Below are positions 43,437 to 50,847 of a stretch of 64,000 nt of DNA, in pieces. Position 1 is the first letter of the stretch. Each line of letters opens with the position of its first letter. The notes beneath the pieces are model-generated. The model did no database searches. It saw only the letters and a program-made list of their open reading frames with translations, and was not told where the DNA came from. Source of the stretch: Pseudomonadales bacterium. GTDB lineage: Bacteria > Pseudomonadota > Gammaproteobacteria > Pseudomonadales > DC-out160. The DNA is taken from positions 62,001 through 126,000 of the forward strand of contig JAHRWA010000104.1 in the NCBI GenBank assembly GCA_019090455.1. Reading direction: 5' to 3'. The translations under genes and the position numbers were made by a program.

Positions 43437-44072
43437 TTAAATCAGCGAAAGGACATACATAACGGCTGTTAATCCCAAGCTAGCATGAATAACACCTTTG
43501 ACTGTGGCGATAGGACCAAGCTTTCCAAAAAGCCCATTGGCTTCCACAGCAATAATTAAGGCGATAATCGCAATAAATCCCATGCCTACATTACCGGCTA
43601 ATGGTGCAGCGGAGGTTCCACCTAAGTGTGTTGACGCTCCCATGAAGAATAACATCGGGCCAGATAATAGTGTGTTAGTTCTGGATGCTAGCAATGCCTT
43701 AGGTCCTGCTACGCCGGCATCGCCTTCTACTATTCCACATACAATTTTCTGAGCAGGCCAAATAATAATCCAAACGTTAAGGAACATGAATGTTCCCATT
43801 AACATGCCGCCATATATATAGGGGTTGGCTCGGTCTAGCATGTGGCCAAATAGTGCTATACCCGTAATGAAAGTACCTGCTGCACCCCAACGGAACCACC
43901 ATAATGCACGTGGCGCTAGCTTCTTAACAGCATCGCTCTTGGCGCTGGGCTCAGCTTCTTTGAAATATTCACCTTGAACAAAGTTAAAGTAATAAAGCAT
44001 GCCTATCCAAGTGATACCGAATAGAAAGTGCCCCCAACGAAATAAGAATTCAATAAGTGATGATATTTCCAT
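43437..44072 (-). CDS. PuuD-like (urate hydroxylase family) membrane protein, membrane domain only
   Basis: 211 residues with about six hydrophobic helices. RWGHFLFGITWIGMLYYFNF at the N-terminus, RALWWFRWGAAGTFITGIALFGHML and the TMP-rich LLSGPMLFFMGA segment match the membrane domain (DUF989) of PuuD-type urate hydroxylases. The C-terminal cytochrome c domain of full PuuD is missing, and no purine-catabolism gene is nearby, so I do not call it a urate enzyme. Conserved His in the helices suggest a redox or haem role. AAGGG precedes the ATG. It is the last gene of a minus-strand run starting with rubrerythrin. Confidence 0.7.
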   Translation of the reverse strand: MEISSLIEFLFRWGHFLFGITWIGMLYYFNFVQGEYFKEAEPSAKSDAVKKLAPRALWWFRWGAAGTFITGIALFGHMLDRANPYIYGGMLMGTFMFLNVWIIIWPAQKIVCGIVEGDAGVAGPKALLASRTNTLLSGPMLFFMGASTHLGGTSAAPLAGNVGMGFIAIIALIIAVEANGLFGKLGPIATVKGVIHASLGLTAVMYVLSLI

Positions 44073-44289
44073 AGTGCTTTGCCCTTGTTATGTGCCTGAG
44101 TGGTTGAAATGGTAAAACGGTTAATTGGTGTCGTCGCCGAAATAGTAAAGTTGTTGCGTAATTTTGTGCGCATACAATATCATTTAATTGACTGAAATCA
44201 AAATGTGACGATACCGAAAGTGCTGTTCGTCAGAGTGAATCCAGCGTTTACAAATATACCCGCAGCTAATTGAAGGATATAAGCGCGAA

Positions 44290-44877
44290 TTAAGACTTCA
44301 AATCCTTAGCCAAAGTGTCCCTCACTTGTTGGTTTAGGGCATAGGGCGTCACTTGATAATGAGGATGATCGAGTCCAATTTTAATATCACTTCCGTTTAA
44401 GATGGCGGATTTTACAGCGTCAGGAAATTCAAACCTAAGGAAATGCACCGCAGAGGTTTTGTGGTCATTTTCTCTTTCTAGGTCCTCGTCTGCAAAGGGG
44501 TAGACGGGGTCGAAATCCTCAACGTTAATCGCTATTTTTGTTTCAATTCCGATGAGCTGTTCTAGCGCTCTTTGGCGTTCTTCCGGGTCATCATATTCGA
44601 TCATAAAAGTGGCTTTTAGATTGGAGCCGGTTGGAATTAAAGGATTGTAGGCATCTAGTTCCTCTTGGATTCCTTTTGCTTCAAATATTTTTTCAATTCT
44701 TAGCATTTCTTGAATTTGGTATTGAATGGTGAGCTGATCTTCGAAATACAAGCGACAATGTTCACCAATCGAAACGCGCCTATTCTTCTTGTGTGCCATG
44801 ACTTTCCGGCGGAAATCATTTCTTTTATCGGAATAACTTTCTAAGGACCATAAATCTTGGCGAGTTAATTGTGGCAT
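44290..44877 (-). CDS. DUF3501 family protein
   Basis: 195 residues, acidic and helical, no signal peptide. The N-terminus LTRQDLWSLESYSDKRNDFRRKVMAHKKNRRVSIG (in parts) and the middle LRIEKIFEAKGIQEEL are what I associate with DUF3501. These occur with a CCG-domain Fe-S protein and rubrerythrin in other proteobacteria. I start at the internal ATG 44875-44877 with AGGTG before it; the longer frame would overlap the Fe-S gene. Function unknown. It lies 49 bp behind the Fe-S gene. Confidence 0.75.
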   Translation of the reverse strand: MPQLTRQDLWSLESYSDKRNDFRRKVMAHKKNRRVSIGEHCRLYFEDQLTIQYQIQEMLRIEKIFEAKGIQEELDAYNPLIPTGSNLKATFMIEYDDPEERQRALEQLIGIETKIAINVEDFDPVYPFADEDLERENDHKTSAVHFLRFEFPDAVKSAILNGSDIKIGLDHPHYQVTPYALNQQVRDTLAKDLKS

Positions 44878-44926
44878 GGTTGCACCTGTACTGGATTCGA
44901 GTGTGTTGTGTAATAGGGTGTTAAAT

Positions 44927-46291
44927 TTATAGGCCGTAAGCAATTCGCAATAGCGTCATAGGATGCTCTGGTTTGTTCGTATTGTCGGCTAAGCTTGCCA
45001 AGTGATTTGCAGCCATGGGGCAATCACTGGCAAAGTAATCTGAACTTATCTTATTCATTTTCTTAACGACGGGTTTGGCGATTTTAACGGCCAAGTCGTA
45101 AGTTTCTTTCTTTACCGCATAGGTCCCGTCATGTCCGGAGCAGCGCTCATGCGCATGAATGGTCGTGTCAGGTATGAGGCTAAGAACATCTCTTGTTTTT
45201 AAGCCGATTTTTTGGACTCGTAAATGACAGGCCACGTGATAACTGACATCGCCTAGCGGTTGTTTAAAGGTAGTGTTGAACGCTTCTTTTTTATGGCGAA
45301 GAAATAAATATTCAAACGGGTCAAAGAAAGCTCTTTTTACCTTTTGTACTTGCTCATCATCCGGAAAAAGAAGTGGCAACTCTTGTTTGTACATAAGTAC
45401 GCAAGAGGGGATGGGGGCGGTTAGGTCGTAACCTTGATCAACCAACGCGGCGAGCACAGGAATGTTAGCATTCTTGAGTTTTTCTACGGCTTCCAAATCA
45501 CCCAGCTCTAGTTTCGGCATGCCGCAACATTGTTCTTTGGGTACGAGGTCTATTTGAATATTGTTATGCGCAAACACCTTAAAAAAATCTTCGCCAATCT
45601 CTGGGCTATTATAATTTCCGTAACAGGTGGCATAGAGAGCTAGCTTGCCCGTGGTGCCATTGATCGCTGTGGTGTTTTTATTTTGTTGGTTCGTTGTCGC
45701 GTCTTGTGTTTTAACAAACTTGGCCACTTGTTTGCGGAGAGTTTGATTGTGGTATTTGGGTACTGGGGCTTTATGATGAATTCCGGCTACTTTTTCCAAA
45801 GATTCTCGAAAAGCTTTATTTTGATTTAACGTGTTAACCGTTACATCGACCATGGGGATACTGACCAACTTGGATACTGCAGTAGTGCTAGATAACACCT
45901 TATCCCTTAATGAGGCGCCTTCTTTTTTAAACTTGCTAGCTTTAGCGCGTAGCATTAGGTGTGGAAAATCAATATTCCATTCATGGGGTGGTACATACGG
46001 GCATTTGCTCATGTAGCACATGTCGCACAAATAACATTGATCAACGACTTTGGAATAATCGTTTTTATCAATACCGTCCACTTCCAGGGTTTCTGATTCG
46101 TCTACTAGATCGAAGAGTGTAGGGAACGATTGGCATAAGCTCACACAGCGGCGGCAACCATGACAAATATCAAAGACGCGTTCCAGTTCTTGATTCAGGG
46201 CATCTTGGTCATAGAATTCTTCAGACTTCCAATCTACGGGGTGTCGGGTGGGAGCCTCTAAACTGCCTTCCCTAGTCGTGTCTTTGCCCAT
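44927..46291 (-). CDS. Fe-S oxidoreductase, heterodisulfide-reductase/GlpC-like
   Basis: 454 residues. Two [4Fe-4S]-type clusters near the N-terminus: C43, C46, C49 and C53 (CHGCRRCVSLC), then C86, C89, C92 and C97 (CYLCDMCYMSKCP). Two C-terminal CCG-like domains follow, one with intact CCG (KEQCCGMP) and one with CSG in place of CCG (HERCSGHDG). This is the layout of HdrD/GlpC/LldE-type electron-transfer subunits. No flavin domain is present, so it must work with a partner. The adjacent rubrerythrin and DUF3501 form the conserved trio I recall; the physiological partner is unknown. Confidence 0.82.
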   Translation of the reverse strand: MGKDTTREGSLEAPTRHPVDWKSEEFYDQDALNQELERVFDICHGCRRCVSLCQSFPTLFDLVDESETLEVDGIDKNDYSKVVDQCYLCDMCYMSKCPYVPPHEWNIDFPHLMLRAKASKFKKEGASLRDKVLSSTTAVSKLVSIPMVDVTVNTLNQNKAFRESLEKVAGIHHKAPVPKYHNQTLRKQVAKFVKTQDATTNQQNKNTTAINGTTGKLALYATCYGNYNSPEIGEDFFKVFAHNNIQIDLVPKEQCCGMPKLELGDLEAVEKLKNANIPVLAALVDQGYDLTAPIPSCVLMYKQELPLLFPDDEQVQKVKRAFFDPFEYLFLRHKKEAFNTTFKQPLGDVSYHVACHLRVQKIGLKTRDVLSLIPDTTIHAHERCSGHDGTYAVKKETYDLAVKIAKPVVKKMNKISSDYFASDCPMAANHLASLADNTNKPEHPMTLLRIAYGL

Positions 46292-46431
46292 AGGAGAATA
46301 GTCCTTGTTGAGTTGGTGTTGTTGACGTAGGTTTTTGCCTAAGTTGTTAGCTAGATTACTAACTAGGTTATTGGTCGTATTATTATGCTAGTGAAAATAC
46401 TTCTGCCTAGATTTCATCGATGGGTGAGAAC

Positions 46432-46465
46432 AAGAAAGCCTCCGAATACAACAGGAGGCTTTCTT
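46432..46465. terminator. terminator-like hairpin after rubrerythrin
   Basis: AAGAAAGCCTCC (46432-46443) pairs perfectly with GGAGGCTTTCTT (46454-46465) around a 10-nt loop. It lies just beyond the rubrerythrin stop and ahead of the Fe-S gene, so it may partly separate rubrerythrin from the genes behind it. Confidence 0.85.
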
Positions 46466-46488
46466 ATATCTTGACTGTGTTTGTCGTT

Positions 46489-46908
46489 CTATCCGTCAAG
46501 ATTGTCTAGTGCTTTTTGGAATCGGTTGGCGTGGCTGCGTTCTGCTTTTGCCAAAGTTTCAAACCAATCAGCGATTTCATCTAAATCTTCTTCTCGTGCT
46601 GTTTTCGCCATACCAGGATACATGTCAGTGTATTCATGTGTTTCACCGGCAATGGCTGCTTTCAGGTTGTCACCTGTTGGGCCAATGGGTAGGCCGGTTG
46701 CCGGATCACCGGTTTCTTCTAAATATTCAAGATGGCCGTGTGCATGTCCTGTTTCGCCTTCAGCTGTGGAGCGGAATACAACAGCAACATCGTTATAACC
46801 TTCAACATCGGCTTTGGCAGCGAAATAAAGGTAACGACGATTTGCTTGCGATTCACCGGCAAAAGCCGCTTTTAAATTGTCTTCAGTTTTGGTGTTTTTA
46901 AGTGACAT
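46489..46908 (-). CDS. rubrerythrin family protein (diiron domain only)
   Basis: 139 residues. The ferritin-like four-helix domain has the diiron residues in [38 protein letters not shown] and [11 protein letters not shown]. The C-terminal rubredoxin domain of classical rubrerythrin is absent (a sulerythrin-like form), so electrons must come from another protein; the adjacent Fe-S protein is a candidate. Rubrerythrins reduce peroxide. The ATG at 46906-46908 has AGGAGA upstream; an upstream frame exists but lacks a site. A Fur-box-like palindrome overlaps the region just before the Shine-Dalgarno. Confidence 0.92.
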
Positions 46909-46919
46909 CAATATTCTCC

Positions 46920-46934
46920 TGAGAATAATTCTCA
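46920..46934 (-). promoter_or_regulatory. Fur/PerR-box-like 7-1-7 palindrome before rubrerythrin
   Basis: The sequence is TGAGAAT-T-ATTCTCA on the minus strand, a perfect 7-1-7 inverted repeat. It matches the Fur core TGATAATnATTATCA at 13 of 15 positions; the flanks do not extend it. It lies 12 bp upstream of the ATG, adjacent to and partly overlapping the AGGAGA site. A regulator bound there would block promoter clearance or ribosome binding. The match is visual. Confidence 0.65.
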
Positions 46935-47122: not shown

Positions 47123-48757
47123 CTAAGACAGATCAAATCCTTCGTAGTCATTTTCCGCTATTTGCGCAATGCGTTCCCGGTACTTAGGGGCACCGCCAAA
47201 GTAAACCATGTGCCTAAGTATGTCGTGACCTTCAACGTTTGAATTGTATCCGGTGAACCAGGATTTAGCCGTACTTACTAATGTATGGCCATACATCTCT
47301 TTTACATGATCCACCCATGCCTCTTCTGCCTCAGGCGTTGCTTCGACTTGCTTGTAGTCATGCTTACCCATGTATTGAATAAGGTCGGCGGTCCAGTCAA
47401 CGGCGCTTTCAATTCCGGGAGGGAAGTTAGTTGATACTGAGGCACCTTGAGGTCCTGCTAACGTGATGAGGTTTGGAAAGCCTGATACTTGCATTCCGTA
47501 CAATGTAATAGGGCCCTTATCCCATTTACTCCGTAATTTCTGACCGTCTTTACCAGTGATATCGATGCGATCGAATGCCCCAGTGATGGCATCAAATCCC
47601 GTGGCATAAATGATGAGATCAAATTCGTATTCCGCATCCGAGGTCTTAATTCCTTTTGGGGTGATTTTATCAATGGGCGTATCACTGACATTCACAAGAT
47701 GTACGTTAGGGCGATTGTAGGCTTCATAGTAGTGTGTCTCCATGGGGACTCTACGCGATCCAAACCCGTGGTCCGTTGGAATTAACATTTCAGCGACAGC
47801 GGGATCGTTAACTCGCCCTCGAATTTTGTTGGCGATGAACTCGGAGAATTCAGCATTTGCTTCTACGTCAGTCAAAACGTCGCGGAAGTTTCCAAGCCAG
47901 ACGCCAAACCCAGGAGAGGCATACAGATCCTCCCAAAAAGCTAACCGGTCTTCAGCTGAAACCGATGCGAAATCACGCCGATCTGGACCGTGAATAAATC
48001 CCCCTGGTGTTTTTTGGCAGCGGGCAAAGATCTCATCATAAGAGGCTTTGATTTTAACTTGTTCGTTGTCATCTATTGGACTGTTGTTCAGAGGTGCGCA
48101 CCAATTAGGCCGTCTTTGAAAGACGGTTAGTTCTCCTACCTTATCGGCAATGGATTGTATGACTTGCACGCCTGTAGCCCCGGTCCCAATAATGGCAACC
48201 TTTTTCCCTTTTAAGTCCACAGGTGTTCTAGGCCAATTATAAGTATGAAAAGATTCGCCTTTAAAAGAATCCAGTCCCTCTAGTCTGGGTTCGGTAGCAG
48301 CGGAAAGCATGCCTATTGCTGTTAACAAATATCGACAAGTTAAATTGCGACCATCAGCTGTTTCTAATCGCCATAAGCCTACTTCCTCGTCGAAGGTCGC
48401 TGCTTTGACTTGAGAATCAAATTGCATGTGGCCCTGCAAATCAAATTTATTAATAACATGCTTAAGATAACTTAGCGTTTCAGGCTGGGCTGCAAAATGT
48501 TCGCTCCAGCTCCATTCTTGTAATAGCTCTTTGGAAAAGCTGTAACCGTAGGTATAACTTTCTGAATCGAATCGGGCGCCGGGGTATCGGTTCCAGTGCC
48601 ATGTACCGCCAGGTCCATCGCCTGCCTCAAGAAGAGTGACATCAAGGCCCAATTTTAGTATGCGGTGTAGCATGTAAATTCCGCACACGCCCGCTCCGAT
48701 GATGATGACTTCACTGTCTGGTTTTGGGCTGCTGGTTTCTGCTGATGTAGAGCTCAT
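47123..48757 (-). CDS. flavoprotein monooxygenase, Baeyer-Villiger type
   Basis: 544 residues, soluble. An N-terminal FAD-binding GAGVCG (21-26) is followed by a second Rossmann motif GTGATG (191-196) for NADPH. Between them is the type I Baeyer-Villiger fingerprint FKGESFHTYNWP (165-176). The enzyme would insert oxygen next to a ketone to make an ester or lactone, or oxidise heteroatoms; the substrate is not predictable. GAGGA precedes the ATG. It stands alone: no dehydrogenase or esterase is adjacent. Confidence 0.88.
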   Translation of the reverse strand: MSSTSAETSSPKPDSEVIIIGAGVCGIYMLHRILKLGLDVTLLEAGDGPGGTWHWNRYPGARFDSESYTYGYSFSKELLQEWSWSEHFAAQPETLSYLKHVINKFDLQGHMQFDSQVKAATFDEEVGLWRLETADGRNLTCRYLLTAIGMLSAATEPRLEGLDSFKGESFHTYNWPRTPVDLKGKKVAIIGTGATGVQVIQSIADKVGELTVFQRRPNWCAPLNNSPIDDNEQVKIKASYDEIFARCQKTPGGFIHGPDRRDFASVSAEDRLAFWEDLYASPGFGVWLGNFRDVLTDVEANAEFSEFIANKIRGRVNDPAVAEMLIPTDHGFGSRRVPMETHYYEAYNRPNVHLVNVSDTPIDKITPKGIKTSDAEYEFDLIIYATGFDAITGAFDRIDITGKDGQKLRSKWDKGPITLYGMQVSGFPNLITLAGPQGASVSTNFPPGIESAVDWTADLIQYMGKHDYKQVEATPEAEEAWVDHVKEMYGHTLVSTAKSWFTGYNSNVEGHDILRHMVYFGGAPKYRERIAQIAENDYEGFDLS

Positions 48758-49131: not shown

Positions 49132-49599
49132 TCATAGTGGGATAGAGGGTTCTGTTTTCGATTGATTCTCCGTTGTAAATTGGATAGTCGCTATTTTCTT
49201 AACGCTGTTAGTTAAATTGGATTCGTCTATATATCCAATGCCATTTATATTTTGAGAAACCCACTGGATAACTAGCGCATCTTCTGTGAATTGTATAGGG
49301 CGTTCCATTCTGCCAGAGAATATCTTGGTTGCCCAAAAACGGTTAAGTTGAGTTAACGATTTATTCACAATATGACTAAAAAAGTGTTGTGATATTTCTT
49401 TTTCTGCGGGTTGATAGGAGATGATGATAGGAGTGCGATTGATAAAATGAGATACGCGAACTCGGTATATGTTTTTTAGCTCTGCCTTTGAGATTGAGTT
49501 AGTCGTATTGCTGTTGTGCACAATAATAGCGATGTCAGCCTGCGCGATGCTAGGCAACAATAAGGCGACTAATAAAATCCATTTTATTATTTGCGTCAT
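49132..49599 (-). CDS. short PstS-like periplasmic phosphate-binding-family protein
   Basis: 155 residues. A signal peptide (IIKWILLVALLLPSIAQA) is followed by a single lobe resembling the PBP-like domain of PstS (IAIIVHNSNTTNSISKAELKNIYRV, in parts; VIQWVSQNINGIGYI). At half the length of true PstS it is probably not a transporter subunit. Such short forms accompany porins or GGDEF sensors in marine gammaproteobacteria, as I recall. It lies 10 bp behind the porin gene, with GAAGG before the ATG; no pstCAB is present. Confidence 0.7.
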   Translation of the reverse strand: MTQIIKWILLVALLLPSIAQADIAIIVHNSNTTNSISKAELKNIYRVRVSHFINRTPIIISYQPAEKEISQHFFSHIVNKSLTQLNRFWATKIFSGRMERPIQFTEDALVIQWVSQNINGIGYIDESNLTNSVKKIATIQFTTENQSKTEPSIPL

Positions 49600-49609
49600 T
49601 GAAAAACCT

Positions 49610-50689
49610 TCAAAAAATAAGATTTAGTGTCATGCTGTACAGTGTTACTTTTTCATCGAAGTTTGGTGGCGGATCTGTAAATGTGTAGGCAGGGCCATCG
49701 AGTAACCTGCCTCTCAGTATTTCCAATTTCATTGAGCTTCGATCTGTTAAGTTATAACGGAAACCGGCGGATACGGAATCACCTTGAACCGTCGTTATGG
49801 TAAAGAGCGTATTGGTTCGGCTTCTGCTAAAAGTGATATTCGGAGTGACTTTAGCAAAGTTATAAGTCAGCGTGACGTAGTAGGCGTTGATCTTGCCTTT
49901 ATCGAGAACTTTAACATCTCCGTATTCCACTAGCCCCCCCCAGTTATTTCGAGTGTAGTGTAAGCCGGCGACGCTGATGTCTACCTCGCCTAAATCTAAT
50001 GGAGCGCTGTTGCCGCTGAATGTGGCGGTGATATCTAGATGAACCCTGGATATTCTCGCTGCGATGTGATCCGCAGTATAGGTGAGTTGGCCACCATAAA
50101 ACTGGTGAGTATCTATGAACAGTGGGCTATTTAAAATGATTGTTATATCTTTAGCTTGTCCTTTGTATAGTTCAGCCTCAATAGAGGATGCGTTAAAGTG
50201 GTGTTTAAATAGTGCGCTTACACCATTGTAATTTGTTAGGCCCCCTGTCAACGCATAAACTTCCATGGGAGGGCGTAACCAGTCATAGGATTGATCGACA
50301 TTAATTGTTTCTGATATGAAATATAACGGCAAGCGCAGGCGGCCAGCTCTAAGCTCAATGTTCGGTGAAAGTTCATGTGAAATAAACAGCCATTCTGCTT
50401 CTAAATCAAAGGTATTATTTCTGTCTTCCGCTTGTAGCTGAGCCGAAAACCGTGATCTTTGCGATAGCCGCGTATCGAGCTGTAAACCGAATACTGTATC
50501 GGATAGATAATTAGTTTTATCTTCAATGAGATTGTTGGTTAGTAAGGCGTTTTGTCGACTAGCGTGCGCCACGCCAGTCGAAAAAAAGCCGCCAATTTGA
50601 ATAGGATTCGCTAAAGTGAGCTGGCAAGAAAGCGCCATGCAGAGGGAAAGAAAAAAAGGAATTTTTGACAAGTGAATTTGCAGTAGCAT
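49610..50689 (-). CDS. outer-membrane porin-like beta-barrel protein
   Basis: 359 residues from ATG 50687-50689. The signal peptide is IPFFLSLCMALSCQLTLA, and the mature start is NPIQIGGFFSTGVAHA. The body alternates polar and aromatic residues in beta-strand patterns (FRYNLTDRSSMKLEILRGRL), and the last strand ends LYSMTLNLIF with a C-terminal Phe, the outer-membrane insertion signal. A longer TTG-started frame exists but would precede the signal peptide by 22 residues. Substrate unknown; its pairing with the PstS-like gene suggests phosphate or another anion. Confidence 0.78.
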   Translation of the reverse strand: MLLQIHLSKIPFFLSLCMALSCQLTLANPIQIGGFFSTGVAHASRQNALLTNNLIEDKTNYLSDTVFGLQLDTRLSQRSRFSAQLQAEDRNNTFDLEAEWLFISHELSPNIELRAGRLRLPLYFISETINVDQSYDWLRPPMEVYALTGGLTNYNGVSALFKHHFNASSIEAELYKGQAKDITIILNSPLFIDTHQFYGGQLTYTADHIAARISRVHLDITATFSGNSAPLDLGEVDISVAGLHYTRNNWGGLVEYGDVKVLDKGKINAYYVTLTYNFAKVTPNITFSRSRTNTLFTITTVQGDSVSAGFRYNLTDRSSMKLEILRGRLLDGPAYTFTDPPPNFDEKVTLYSMTLNLIF

Positions 50690-50847
50690 AGCCAAATCAA
50701 TCCGAGTCACAGGGTGCAGCGTTAATCTATGACGTAACAAGGTATGTGGCAACAAGAACGTAAAGTGAAGCTAAAAAGGTAGTTTAGTGGGAGCCGATCT
50801 GTCAAGTTGAGGTCGAGCCTTGGATGGGTGTACTCTGGTTGGGGTTT

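What the first reader, a model, noticed from the sequence alone, without database searches (positions are those of the whole stretch)
43437..46934. Rubrerythrin / CCG Fe-S protein / DUF3501 / PuuD-like cluster under a Fur-like box
Four minus-strand genes of unknown joint function run in order from a palindrome matching the Fur core at 13 of 15 positions. The rubrerythrin lacks its rubredoxin domain, so the clustered Fe-S protein with two [4Fe-4S] motifs (and one CSG-for-CCG site) is a plausible electron donor. The membrane protein with conserved His could be the quinone or haem end. Together this could be a peroxide-reducing or iron-protecting electron chain that has not been described as a unit.
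Basis: partly seen in the sequence, partly recalled or inferred. Interest (0 to 1): 0.55.

Follow-up and report, generated by a model that had tools for sequence, protein, structure and literature searches.

The report
Aerobic rubrerythrin peroxide-defence gene set
A marine bacterium carries a known three-gene set built around rubrerythrin, an iron enzyme thought to remove hydrogen peroxide, with an iron-regulator-type switch in front of it; the fourth gene named in the finding does not belong, and the new part is that many relatives carry a matching iron-regulator switch at the same place.

Summary
The genes and the palindrome are real. The first three genes (rubrerythrin without rubredoxin, GlpC-like CCG protein, DUF3501) are the "aerobic-type rubrerythrin" unit published in 2016, whose authors already proposed the Fe-S protein (RFO) as stand-in for the missing rubredoxin domain. 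So "not described as a unit" is wrong. All three stood together in 121 of 127 loci examined. "CSG for CCG" is not a defect: 86 of 86 RFOs have CSGH. One plain operon is doubtful: a terminator-like hairpin follows rubrerythrin here and in 49 of 83 gaps tested. The Fur-like box is well supported (one of five exact sites in 5.55 Mb; arms kept in two relatives). Found here: 45 of 122 rubrerythrin upstream regions carry TTAGA-N5-TCTAA, which goes with an Irr-like regulator (43 of 45 box genomes; 8 of 35 searched without it). An Irr-like gene adjoins the cluster in 11 of 121 loci, an OxyR gene in 14 (OxyR adjacency in print for one organism). Electron transfer to rubrerythrin and DUF3501's role remain untested.

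The parts
46920..46934 (-). Fur-type operator palindrome TGAGAATTATTCTCA, 11 bases upstream of the rubrerythrin start codon and abutting the ribosome-binding site
   Evidence: Exact match to TGANAATNATTNTCA, 5 such sites in the genome; arms TGAGA-N5-TCTCA kept in G001 and G012 at the same place; G000 has two Fur-family proteins, a Fur and a weaker one I read as Zur-like, and no Irr-type one. Binding not tested.
46489..46908 (-). rbr: aerobic-type rubrerythrin, 139 aa, no rubredoxin domain
   Evidence: PF02915 99 bits; E19, E52, H55, E89, E92, E123, H126 (ligand roles recalled) invariant in 85 of 85 homologues; closest solved relatives 9onm, 4di0, 8fuh at about 241 bits, sulerythrin 172 bits
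46426..46463 (-). terminator-like hairpin (10-bp stem, 10-nt loop, T-rich tail) between rbr and RFO
   Evidence: such hairpins in 49 of 83 rbr-RFO gaps tested, 3.15 on average in dinucleotide shuffles, 25 of 83 on the opposite strand. The scan did not list it (its loop limit is 8).
44927..46291 (-). RFO: GlpC-like protein with two [4Fe-4S] motifs (C43/46/49/53; C86/89/92/97), a CCG domain (C223, C255-C256-G, C297) and a CSGH domain (C355-H356, C384-S385-G386-H387, C424)
   Evidence: Pfam/NCBIfam; 26% identity to E. coli GlpC; named residues invariant in 86 of 86; model pLDDT 91.7 matches LutA, EtfD and HdrB
44290..44877 (-). DUF3501 protein, 195 aa
   Evidence: PF12007 241 bits; model pLDDT 95.5; same fold as 3fjv, Z 28, no other clear match
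43437..44072 (-). short Urate_ox_N/DUF989-type membrane protein; next to the trio here but judged not part of it
   Evidence: PF06181, best stretch 172-248 of 295; no CxxCH; adjoins the trio in 3 of 127 loci; frequent neighbours elsewhere are groEL, a coiled-coil membrane protein and fumarate hydratase

Best explanation
The trio rbr-RFO-DUF3501 is a member of the published aerobic-type rubrerythrin system. Most likely mechanism: rubrerythrin's di-metal site reduces hydrogen peroxide (family knowledge; not shown here); RFO, which keeps two cubane-cluster motifs and the CCG modules of the GlpC/EtfD/HdrB family, re-reduces it in place of the missing rubredoxin domain (published proposal, inferred); DUF3501, which can accompany this rubrerythrin without RFO, may be a docking or maturation partner (inferred). 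A Fur-type operator directly before the rubrerythrin ribosome-binding site should repress it when iron is plentiful and release it on iron starvation or when peroxide disables Fur (inferred). The hairpin after rbr suggests more rubrerythrin than RFO/DUF3501 (inferred). The short DUF989-type gene is a neighbour, not a component.
For: Trio complete, same strand and order, in 44 of 50 order loci, 40 of 40 and 22 of 22 further class loci and 15 of 15 loci outside the class. Unit and RFO donor role proposed in PMC5114695; trio also in eukaryotes with predicted mitochondrial targeting (PMC7050145, passages). Candidate ligand residues invariant 85 of 85. OxyR gene beside the cluster in 14 of 121 loci, 11 of them with both redox-cysteine positions; PMC7852563 (passages) reports the same clustering in Sideroxydans lithotrophicus. 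Fur site. Hairpin. RFO fold. B. pseudomallei rubrerythrin is stated to be expressed under oxidative stress (PMC12585693, whole record, an abstract; that 9onm or 8fuh is this protein is my assumption). Pelagibacter rubrerythrin transcript was 1.57-fold higher on iron limitation (PMC2864753, passages; its membership in this family not checked).
Against: No activity, binding or expression was tested. G012 breaks the inner AAT/ATT of the Fur core (TGAGAAGTGTTCTCA), so Fur may not be the protein there. L106 has rbr and DUF3501 without RFO in its 10 kb, and the 2016 paper reports the same pairing in Thermoproteales, so RFO cannot be the donor throughout the family; L088 and L091 have RFO and DUF3501 without a nearby rubrerythrin. 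RFO's own electron source is unknown: no flavin, NAD(P) or haem domain was found. The opposite-strand control for the hairpin is well above shuffles (25 of 83), so only part of that signal is strand-specific. 119 of 122 rubrerythrin upstream regions lack the window's TGAGA-N5-TCTCA arms.
Confidence: 0.6

Rival explanations
1. The rubrerythrin mainly handles iron (ferroxidase or storage-like sink that limits Fenton chemistry), and RFO plus DUF3501 load or repair its metal site rather than feed catalytic turnover.
For: Iron regulators (Fur, Irr-like) recur at the cluster; DUF3501 can occur with rbr without RFO (L106); the B. pseudomallei relative binds Mn, Co and Fe with partial occupancy; PMC2864753 labels the Pelagibacter protein a hypothetical ferroxidase.
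Against: OxyR adjacency in 14 of 121 loci points to peroxide; RFO keeps the ligand sets of an electron-carrier family.
Confidence: 0.2
2. All four genes form one electron chain with the membrane protein as quinone or haem end.
For: The short DUF989-type gene directly follows DUF3501 on the same strand here, in G001 (same genus) and in G052; 26 of 50 DUF3501 genomes of the order have a match against 71 of 243 without DUF3501.
Against: It adjoins the trio in 3 of 127 loci and lies on another contig in 23 of the 26 genomes with both; frequent neighbours elsewhere are groEL and fumarate hydratase; G011, of G052's genus, has the trio without it.
Confidence: 0.06
3. The palindrome acts as an RNA stem-loop at the ribosome-binding site rather than as a DNA operator.
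For: Six-base arms and a three-base loop abut the Shine-Dalgarno sequence in all three genomes; arms kept, loop varies.
Against: The arms are invariant in the three, so there is no covariation to show pairing; elsewhere the related palindrome begins 32-141 bases upstream of the start codon, where a DNA operator is the natural reading, and it goes with a DNA-binding regulator.
Confidence: 0.1

Closest known systems
Aerobic-type rubrerythrin system, rbr-RFO-DUF3501 (Cardenas, Quatrini and Holmes 2016, PMC5114695)
   Same: Same three families in the same cluster; rubrerythrin without rubredoxin; RFO related to GlpC; DUF3501 of unknown function
   Different: Fur-type operator, terminator-like hairpin and neighbouring short DUF989-type gene; the words urate, Irr, OxyR, regulator, operator and promoter do not occur in that paper
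GlpC of anaerobic glycerol-3-phosphate dehydrogenase (E. coli)
   Same: Two cubane motifs and two CCG modules, 26% identity over 417 columns
   Different: GlpC keeps CCG and DCETC in the second module; RFO has CSGH and DCPMA there. No GlpA/GlpB-like partner was seen among the recurrent neighbours listed
EtfD of Mycobacterium smegmatis (9ojn; PMC13083937, passages)
   Same: Fold match over nearly the whole length: Z 21.3, 362 residues, rmsd 3.6
   Different: EtfD is membrane-bound, with a b haem; its altered CCG module is the first (Thr539), RFO's is the second (Ser385)
Irr regulators of alphaproteobacteria with ICE operators (PMC3413700, passages)
   Same: Fur superfamily, invariant HxH in the Irr-like set, palindrome of the TTAGAA type (operator letters recalled)
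   Different: Here Irr-like genes and operators are tied to rbr-RFO-DUF3501, also inside the window's class; the window's own genome has no Irr-type match
PuuD urate oxidase (PMC4562309, passages)
   Same: Shares part of the membrane domain
   Different: Short form, no cytochrome c; that paper already set short DUF989 proteins apart by their different gene context

Membership tests
Aerobic-type rubrerythrin (trio) | rubrerythrin ferritin-like domain without rubredoxin | tested here: met
   PF02915 and Ferritin only; 139 aa; no Cys
Aerobic-type rubrerythrin (trio) | co-localised DUF3501 | tested here: met
   PF12007 241 bits two genes downstream
Aerobic-type rubrerythrin (trio) | co-localised COG0247-type Fe-S oxidoreductase (RFO) | tested here: met
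   CCG domain, GlpC models below their cut-offs; homologues in the same place in 88 of 90 loci. The COG itself was not scanned.
Aerobic-type rubrerythrin (trio) | peroxide reductase activity with RFO as donor | not testable with these tools
   no bench data; proposed in PMC5114695
GlpC equivalog (NF008369, TIGR03379) | score over curated cut-off | tested here: not met
   227.6 of 278 and 142.9 of 279.9 bits
GlpC equivalog (NF008369, TIGR03379) | two intact CCG motifs | tested here: not met
   second is CSGH in 86 of 86 RFOs; E. coli GlpC has CCG
PuuD urate oxidase | full 8-helix DUF989 domain | tested here: not met
   211 aa, best stretch 172-248 of 295
PuuD urate oxidase | C-terminal cytochrome c (CxxCH) | tested here: not met
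   no CxxCH
Fur-regulated gene | Fur-type operator near the gene start | tested here: met
   exact core site at 46920-46934; 3 of 122 loci share the arms
Fur-regulated gene | Fur binding and iron response | not testable with these tools
   needs footprint and expression data
EtfD-like carrier of a linear [3Fe-4S] cluster | ligand set C, C, CxxC with the second Cys of CCG replaced | tested here: inconclusive
   second RFO module has C355, C384-S385, C424 but lacks the last Cys of CxxC; H356 and H387 are invariant. No coordinates were available for geometry.

The most novel reading that the evidence does not exclude
Rubrerythrin-RFO-DUF3501 is a peroxide-reducing chain wired to iron and peroxide sensing across proteobacteria: an Irr-like repressor on TTAGA-N5-TCTAA in many lineages that have Irr, replaced by Fur on TGAGA-N5-TCTCA in the window's lineage, which has no Irr, with OxyR beside the genes elsewhere. 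RFO is an oxygen-adapted mirror of EtfD whose second CCG module (CSGH) holds an unusual, possibly linear [3Fe-4S] or His-ligated, cluster that passes electrons to rubrerythrin.
Probability: 0.2. Interest if true: 0.65.

Novelty: new member of a known kind. Interest (0 to 1): 0.42.

Why it matters
The trio is widespread (DUF3501 in 160 of 369 class genomes sampled) and has been proposed for the mitochondrion of the last common ancestor of eukaryotes (PMC7050145, passages), yet its donor and the role of DUF3501 have not been tested in the papers seen here, and I found no report of its operator. A conserved operator with a matching regulator, plus OxyR adjacency, gives direct tests of when the system works. 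The invariant CSGH site and the EtfD fold match give a defined spectroscopic question for RFO.

Tried and rejected
Four-gene operon: rejected on hairpin, gap and co-occurrence. PuuD assignment: rejected. CSG as a degenerate site: rejected, invariant. RFO-DUF3501 fusions: the long open frames at DUF3501 in G352, G549 and G592 proved to be other frames than RFO (my arithmetic), so no natural fusion was at hand to model an interface; PMC5114695 reports one in Nitrosomonas. DUF3501 function from fold: nothing beyond 3fjv; other rows Z 6.7 or lower. Genome-wide regulon of TNAGAANNNTTCTNA in G000, G001, G012, G004 and G047: no excess over the reversed control. Genes behind the five exact Fur-core sites: one bacterioferritin-like ORF and the rubrerythrin; the other three were not resolved. 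RFO sequence profile in solved structures: no hit at 0.001, HdrB at E 0.1.

Absence from print: searched the open-licence PMC library. Five papers hold the word DUF3501; I searched words in all five: no Irr in PMC5114695, PMC7852563 and PMC7050145; Irr was not among the words searched in PMC7465337 and PMC3597751. PMC7852563 does report OxyR beside the trio in Sideroxydans, so OxyR adjacency is not new. Most other listed papers were not opened; subscription papers and regulon databases were out of reach, and a predicted Irr or PerR regulon for this cluster may exist there. One search returned mostly unrelated papers.

Caveats on counts: loci were best-scoring or chosen matches, not a random draw, and genomes are related, so the Fisher value (4.5e-12) ignores phylogeny. 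The operator pattern was refined on the same loci; the spacing control (45 at spacing 5, one at 6, none at 0-4 and 7-12) and mononucleotide shuffles (0.06) are the safeguard. The Irr profile was built from 7 cluster-adjacent proteins, 6 from box-bearing loci; without those 7 genomes the table is 37 of 39 against 7 of 34. One search covered 80 genomes of those behind 122 upstream regions; the 42 left out (32 order, 10 outside the class; cap 80) all lack the exact box, and two of them (L275, L283) have an Irr-like gene beside the cluster, so the row without box is incomplete. Of the 11 loci with an adjacent Irr-like gene 6 have the exact arms; the 5 outside the class do not, though L274 and L277 have near variants. 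G001 (87% complete) and G012 (81%) could hide an Irr. Hairpin counts cover 83 gaps; the 37 loci were not tested. RFO counts cover 86 of 88 (L080 and L108 dropped: no full frame taken). G286 (partial match at a contig end) was not fetched.
Full report
WHAT IS THERE. The window is G000:C104:62001-126000 of a 5.55 Mb draft genome. On the minus strand lie rubrerythrin (46489-46908), a GlpC-like Fe-S protein (44927-46291), DUF3501 (44290-44877) and a short membrane protein (43437-44072). The finding's end, 46934, is the end of the palindrome.

THE TRIO IS KNOWN. Cardenas, Quatrini and Holmes (PMC5114695; outline and passages) named the "aerobic-type" rubrerythrin and RFO, reported triple co-occurrence in 185 genomes of a set of 4461, and suggested that RFO compensates for the lost rubredoxin-like domain. 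PMC7050145 (passages) found the three proteins in eukaryotes with predicted mitochondrial targeting. My survey agrees: DUF3501 in 50 of 293 order genomes, 160 of 369 class genomes and 25 of 398 phylum genomes, 15 of these 25 outside the class. The full trio, same strand and order, stands in 44 of 50 order loci. Of the six exceptions L074 and L108 reach a contig end, L088 and L091 lack rbr, L106 lacks RFO and L111 has DUF3501 only. It also stands in 40 of 40 and 22 of 22 further class loci and in 15 of 15 loci outside the class: 121 of 127.

THE FOURTH GENE IS A NEIGHBOUR. A match to the window's protein (E up to 1e-5) is in 97 of 293 order genomes; some are weak matches inside longer frames of over 400 codons, probably full-length urate oxidases. 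26 of the 50 DUF3501 genomes have a match, so co-occurrence is enriched (71 of 243 otherwise), but it adjoins the trio only here, in G001 and in G052: 3 of 127 loci. Of 34 loci centred on this gene (these three included), 21 have a coiled-coil membrane protein, 18 a fumarate hydratase and 16 groEL nearby (names by my reading of the sequences). PMC4562309 (passages) had already separated short DUF989 proteins without cytochrome from PuuD by their different gene context; equating PF06181 with DUF989 is my inference.

RFO. Across 86 homologues all eight cubane-cluster cysteines, C223, C255, C256, C297 of the first CCG module and C355, H356, C384, S385, G386, H387, C424 of the second are invariant. 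E. coli GlpC has intact CCG and CxxC in the second module. The model (pLDDT 91.7) matches a LutA model (Z 24.4, 227 residues), M. smegmatis EtfD over 362 residues (Z 21.3, rmsd 3.6) and HdrB (Z 20.1-20.6). In EtfD the two CCG modules carry a linear [3Fe-4S] cluster, where Thr replaces the second Cys, and a noncubane [4Fe-4S] cluster with a His ligand; its authors say this may indicate adaptation to aerobic conditions (PMC13083937, passages). RFO has the altered module in second place and two invariant histidines. That its CSGH site binds an unusual cluster is an inference; no coordinates were available for geometry.

DUF3501 is solved as 3fjv (Z 28, 54% identity) with no other clear fold relative. 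Invariant in 66 aligned sequences are Y15, R19, R33, F45, E46, Q54, E57, E73, Y77, G84, T90, D132, F146 and D192. Its function stays open; docking or maturation is a guess.

TRANSCRIPTION. A 10-bp hairpin with a T-rich tail (46426-46463) follows rbr. With a strict perfect-stem criterion 49 of 83 rbr-RFO gaps have one; 20 rounds of dinucleotide shuffles gave 3.15 on average and 6 at most; the opposite strand gives 25 of 83. So rubrerythrin is probably made in excess over RFO-DUF3501; this is inferred.

OPERATORS. The window's palindrome is an exact Fur-core site. G000 has a Fur (155 bits) and a second, weak Fur-family protein (46 bits) that I read as Zur-like. Another exact site lies upstream of a bacterioferritin-like ORF (identified by eye); three were not resolved. 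TGAGA-N5-TCTCA occurs in 3 of 122 rubrerythrin upstream regions: the window, G001 and G012, each abutting the ribosome-binding site. A scan of the species-genome collection for the palindrome plus ribosome-binding site found only those two relatives. Unexpectedly, 45 of 122 upstream regions carry TTAGA-N5-TCTAA within 200 bases of the start; mononucleotide shuffles give 0.06, and other spacings from 0 to 12 give one hit in all. An Irr-like gene adjoins the cluster in 11 of 121 loci, 6 of them with the exact arms. Scored with a profile of seven of these, 80 genomes split cleanly: best hit at least 123 bits in 51, at most 70.2 in the rest. Of 45 box genomes 43 have the Irr-like protein, of 35 searched without the box 8; the 42 loci left out all lack the box and two of them have Irr alongside, so the link is firm within the class and loose outside it. 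G000, G001 and G012 have no Irr-type match, which fits a change of regulator from Irr to Fur; this is inference. G012's site departs from the Fur core, which weakens it.

OXYR. A gene 37-50% identical to E. coli OxyR adjoins the cluster in 14 of 121 loci, divergent from or upstream of rbr or downstream of DUF3501; 11 keep both redox-cysteine positions. G012, which shares the window's operator, is one of them. One such case, Sideroxydans lithotrophicus, is already in print (PMC7852563, passages). This is the best independent support for a peroxide role.

JUDGEMENT. Observation largely right; unit already described; fourth gene rejected; the Irr/Fur operator finding new as far as the searches named under Tried and rejected show; mechanism still inferred.

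Noticed in passing
L109 2211-2621, L110 1984-2505, L272, L274, L275, L277, L283 (upstream of rbr); L259 3851-4249, L261 4993-5427, L287 4997-5389, L296 3050-3484 (3' side of DUF3501): Irr-like Fur-family regulator genes adjoin the rubrerythrin cluster in 11 of 121 loci, inside and outside the window's class.
   Followed up: yes
45 of 122 rubrerythrin upstream regions, e.g. L250 -66, L296 -73, L259 -36: Conserved palindrome TTAGA-N5-TCTAA that goes with the Irr-like protein. The five loci outside the class with an adjacent Irr-like gene lack the exact arms; L242 and L252 have the box but their genomes gave no Irr-type match.
   Followed up: yes
L071, L079, L086, L092, L093, L101, L102, L104, L107, L225, L228, L257, L066, L310: OxyR-like genes beside the cluster; L257 lacks the second redox cysteine and L066 and L310 lack the GHC motif.
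   Followed up: partly
L106 (G182): Rubrerythrin and DUF3501 directly adjacent without RFO in the 10-kb locus, a possible natural test of whether RFO is needed; the rest of that genome was not searched for RFO.
   Followed up: no
L070, about 30-110 bases upstream of rbr: Direct repeats of about 20 bases (TTAGTC.TATCTAAAA type) just before the operator in G001.
   Followed up: no
L070 3844-4481: The short DUF989-type gene of G001 reads as two overlapping frames (draft contig error or decay).
   Followed up: no
L112-L142: The short DUF989-type gene often lies near groEL, a coiled-coil membrane protein and a fumarate hydratase; its function is unknown and the context may be a lead.
   Followed up: partly
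window 47123-48757 and 49132-50755: Upstream of rbr on the same strand: a flavin monooxygenase-like protein, a small protein without Pfam match, and a porin.
   Followed up: no
L177 (G000:C2:38817-38831): Another exact Fur-core site, upstream of a bacterioferritin-like ORF.
   Followed up: no
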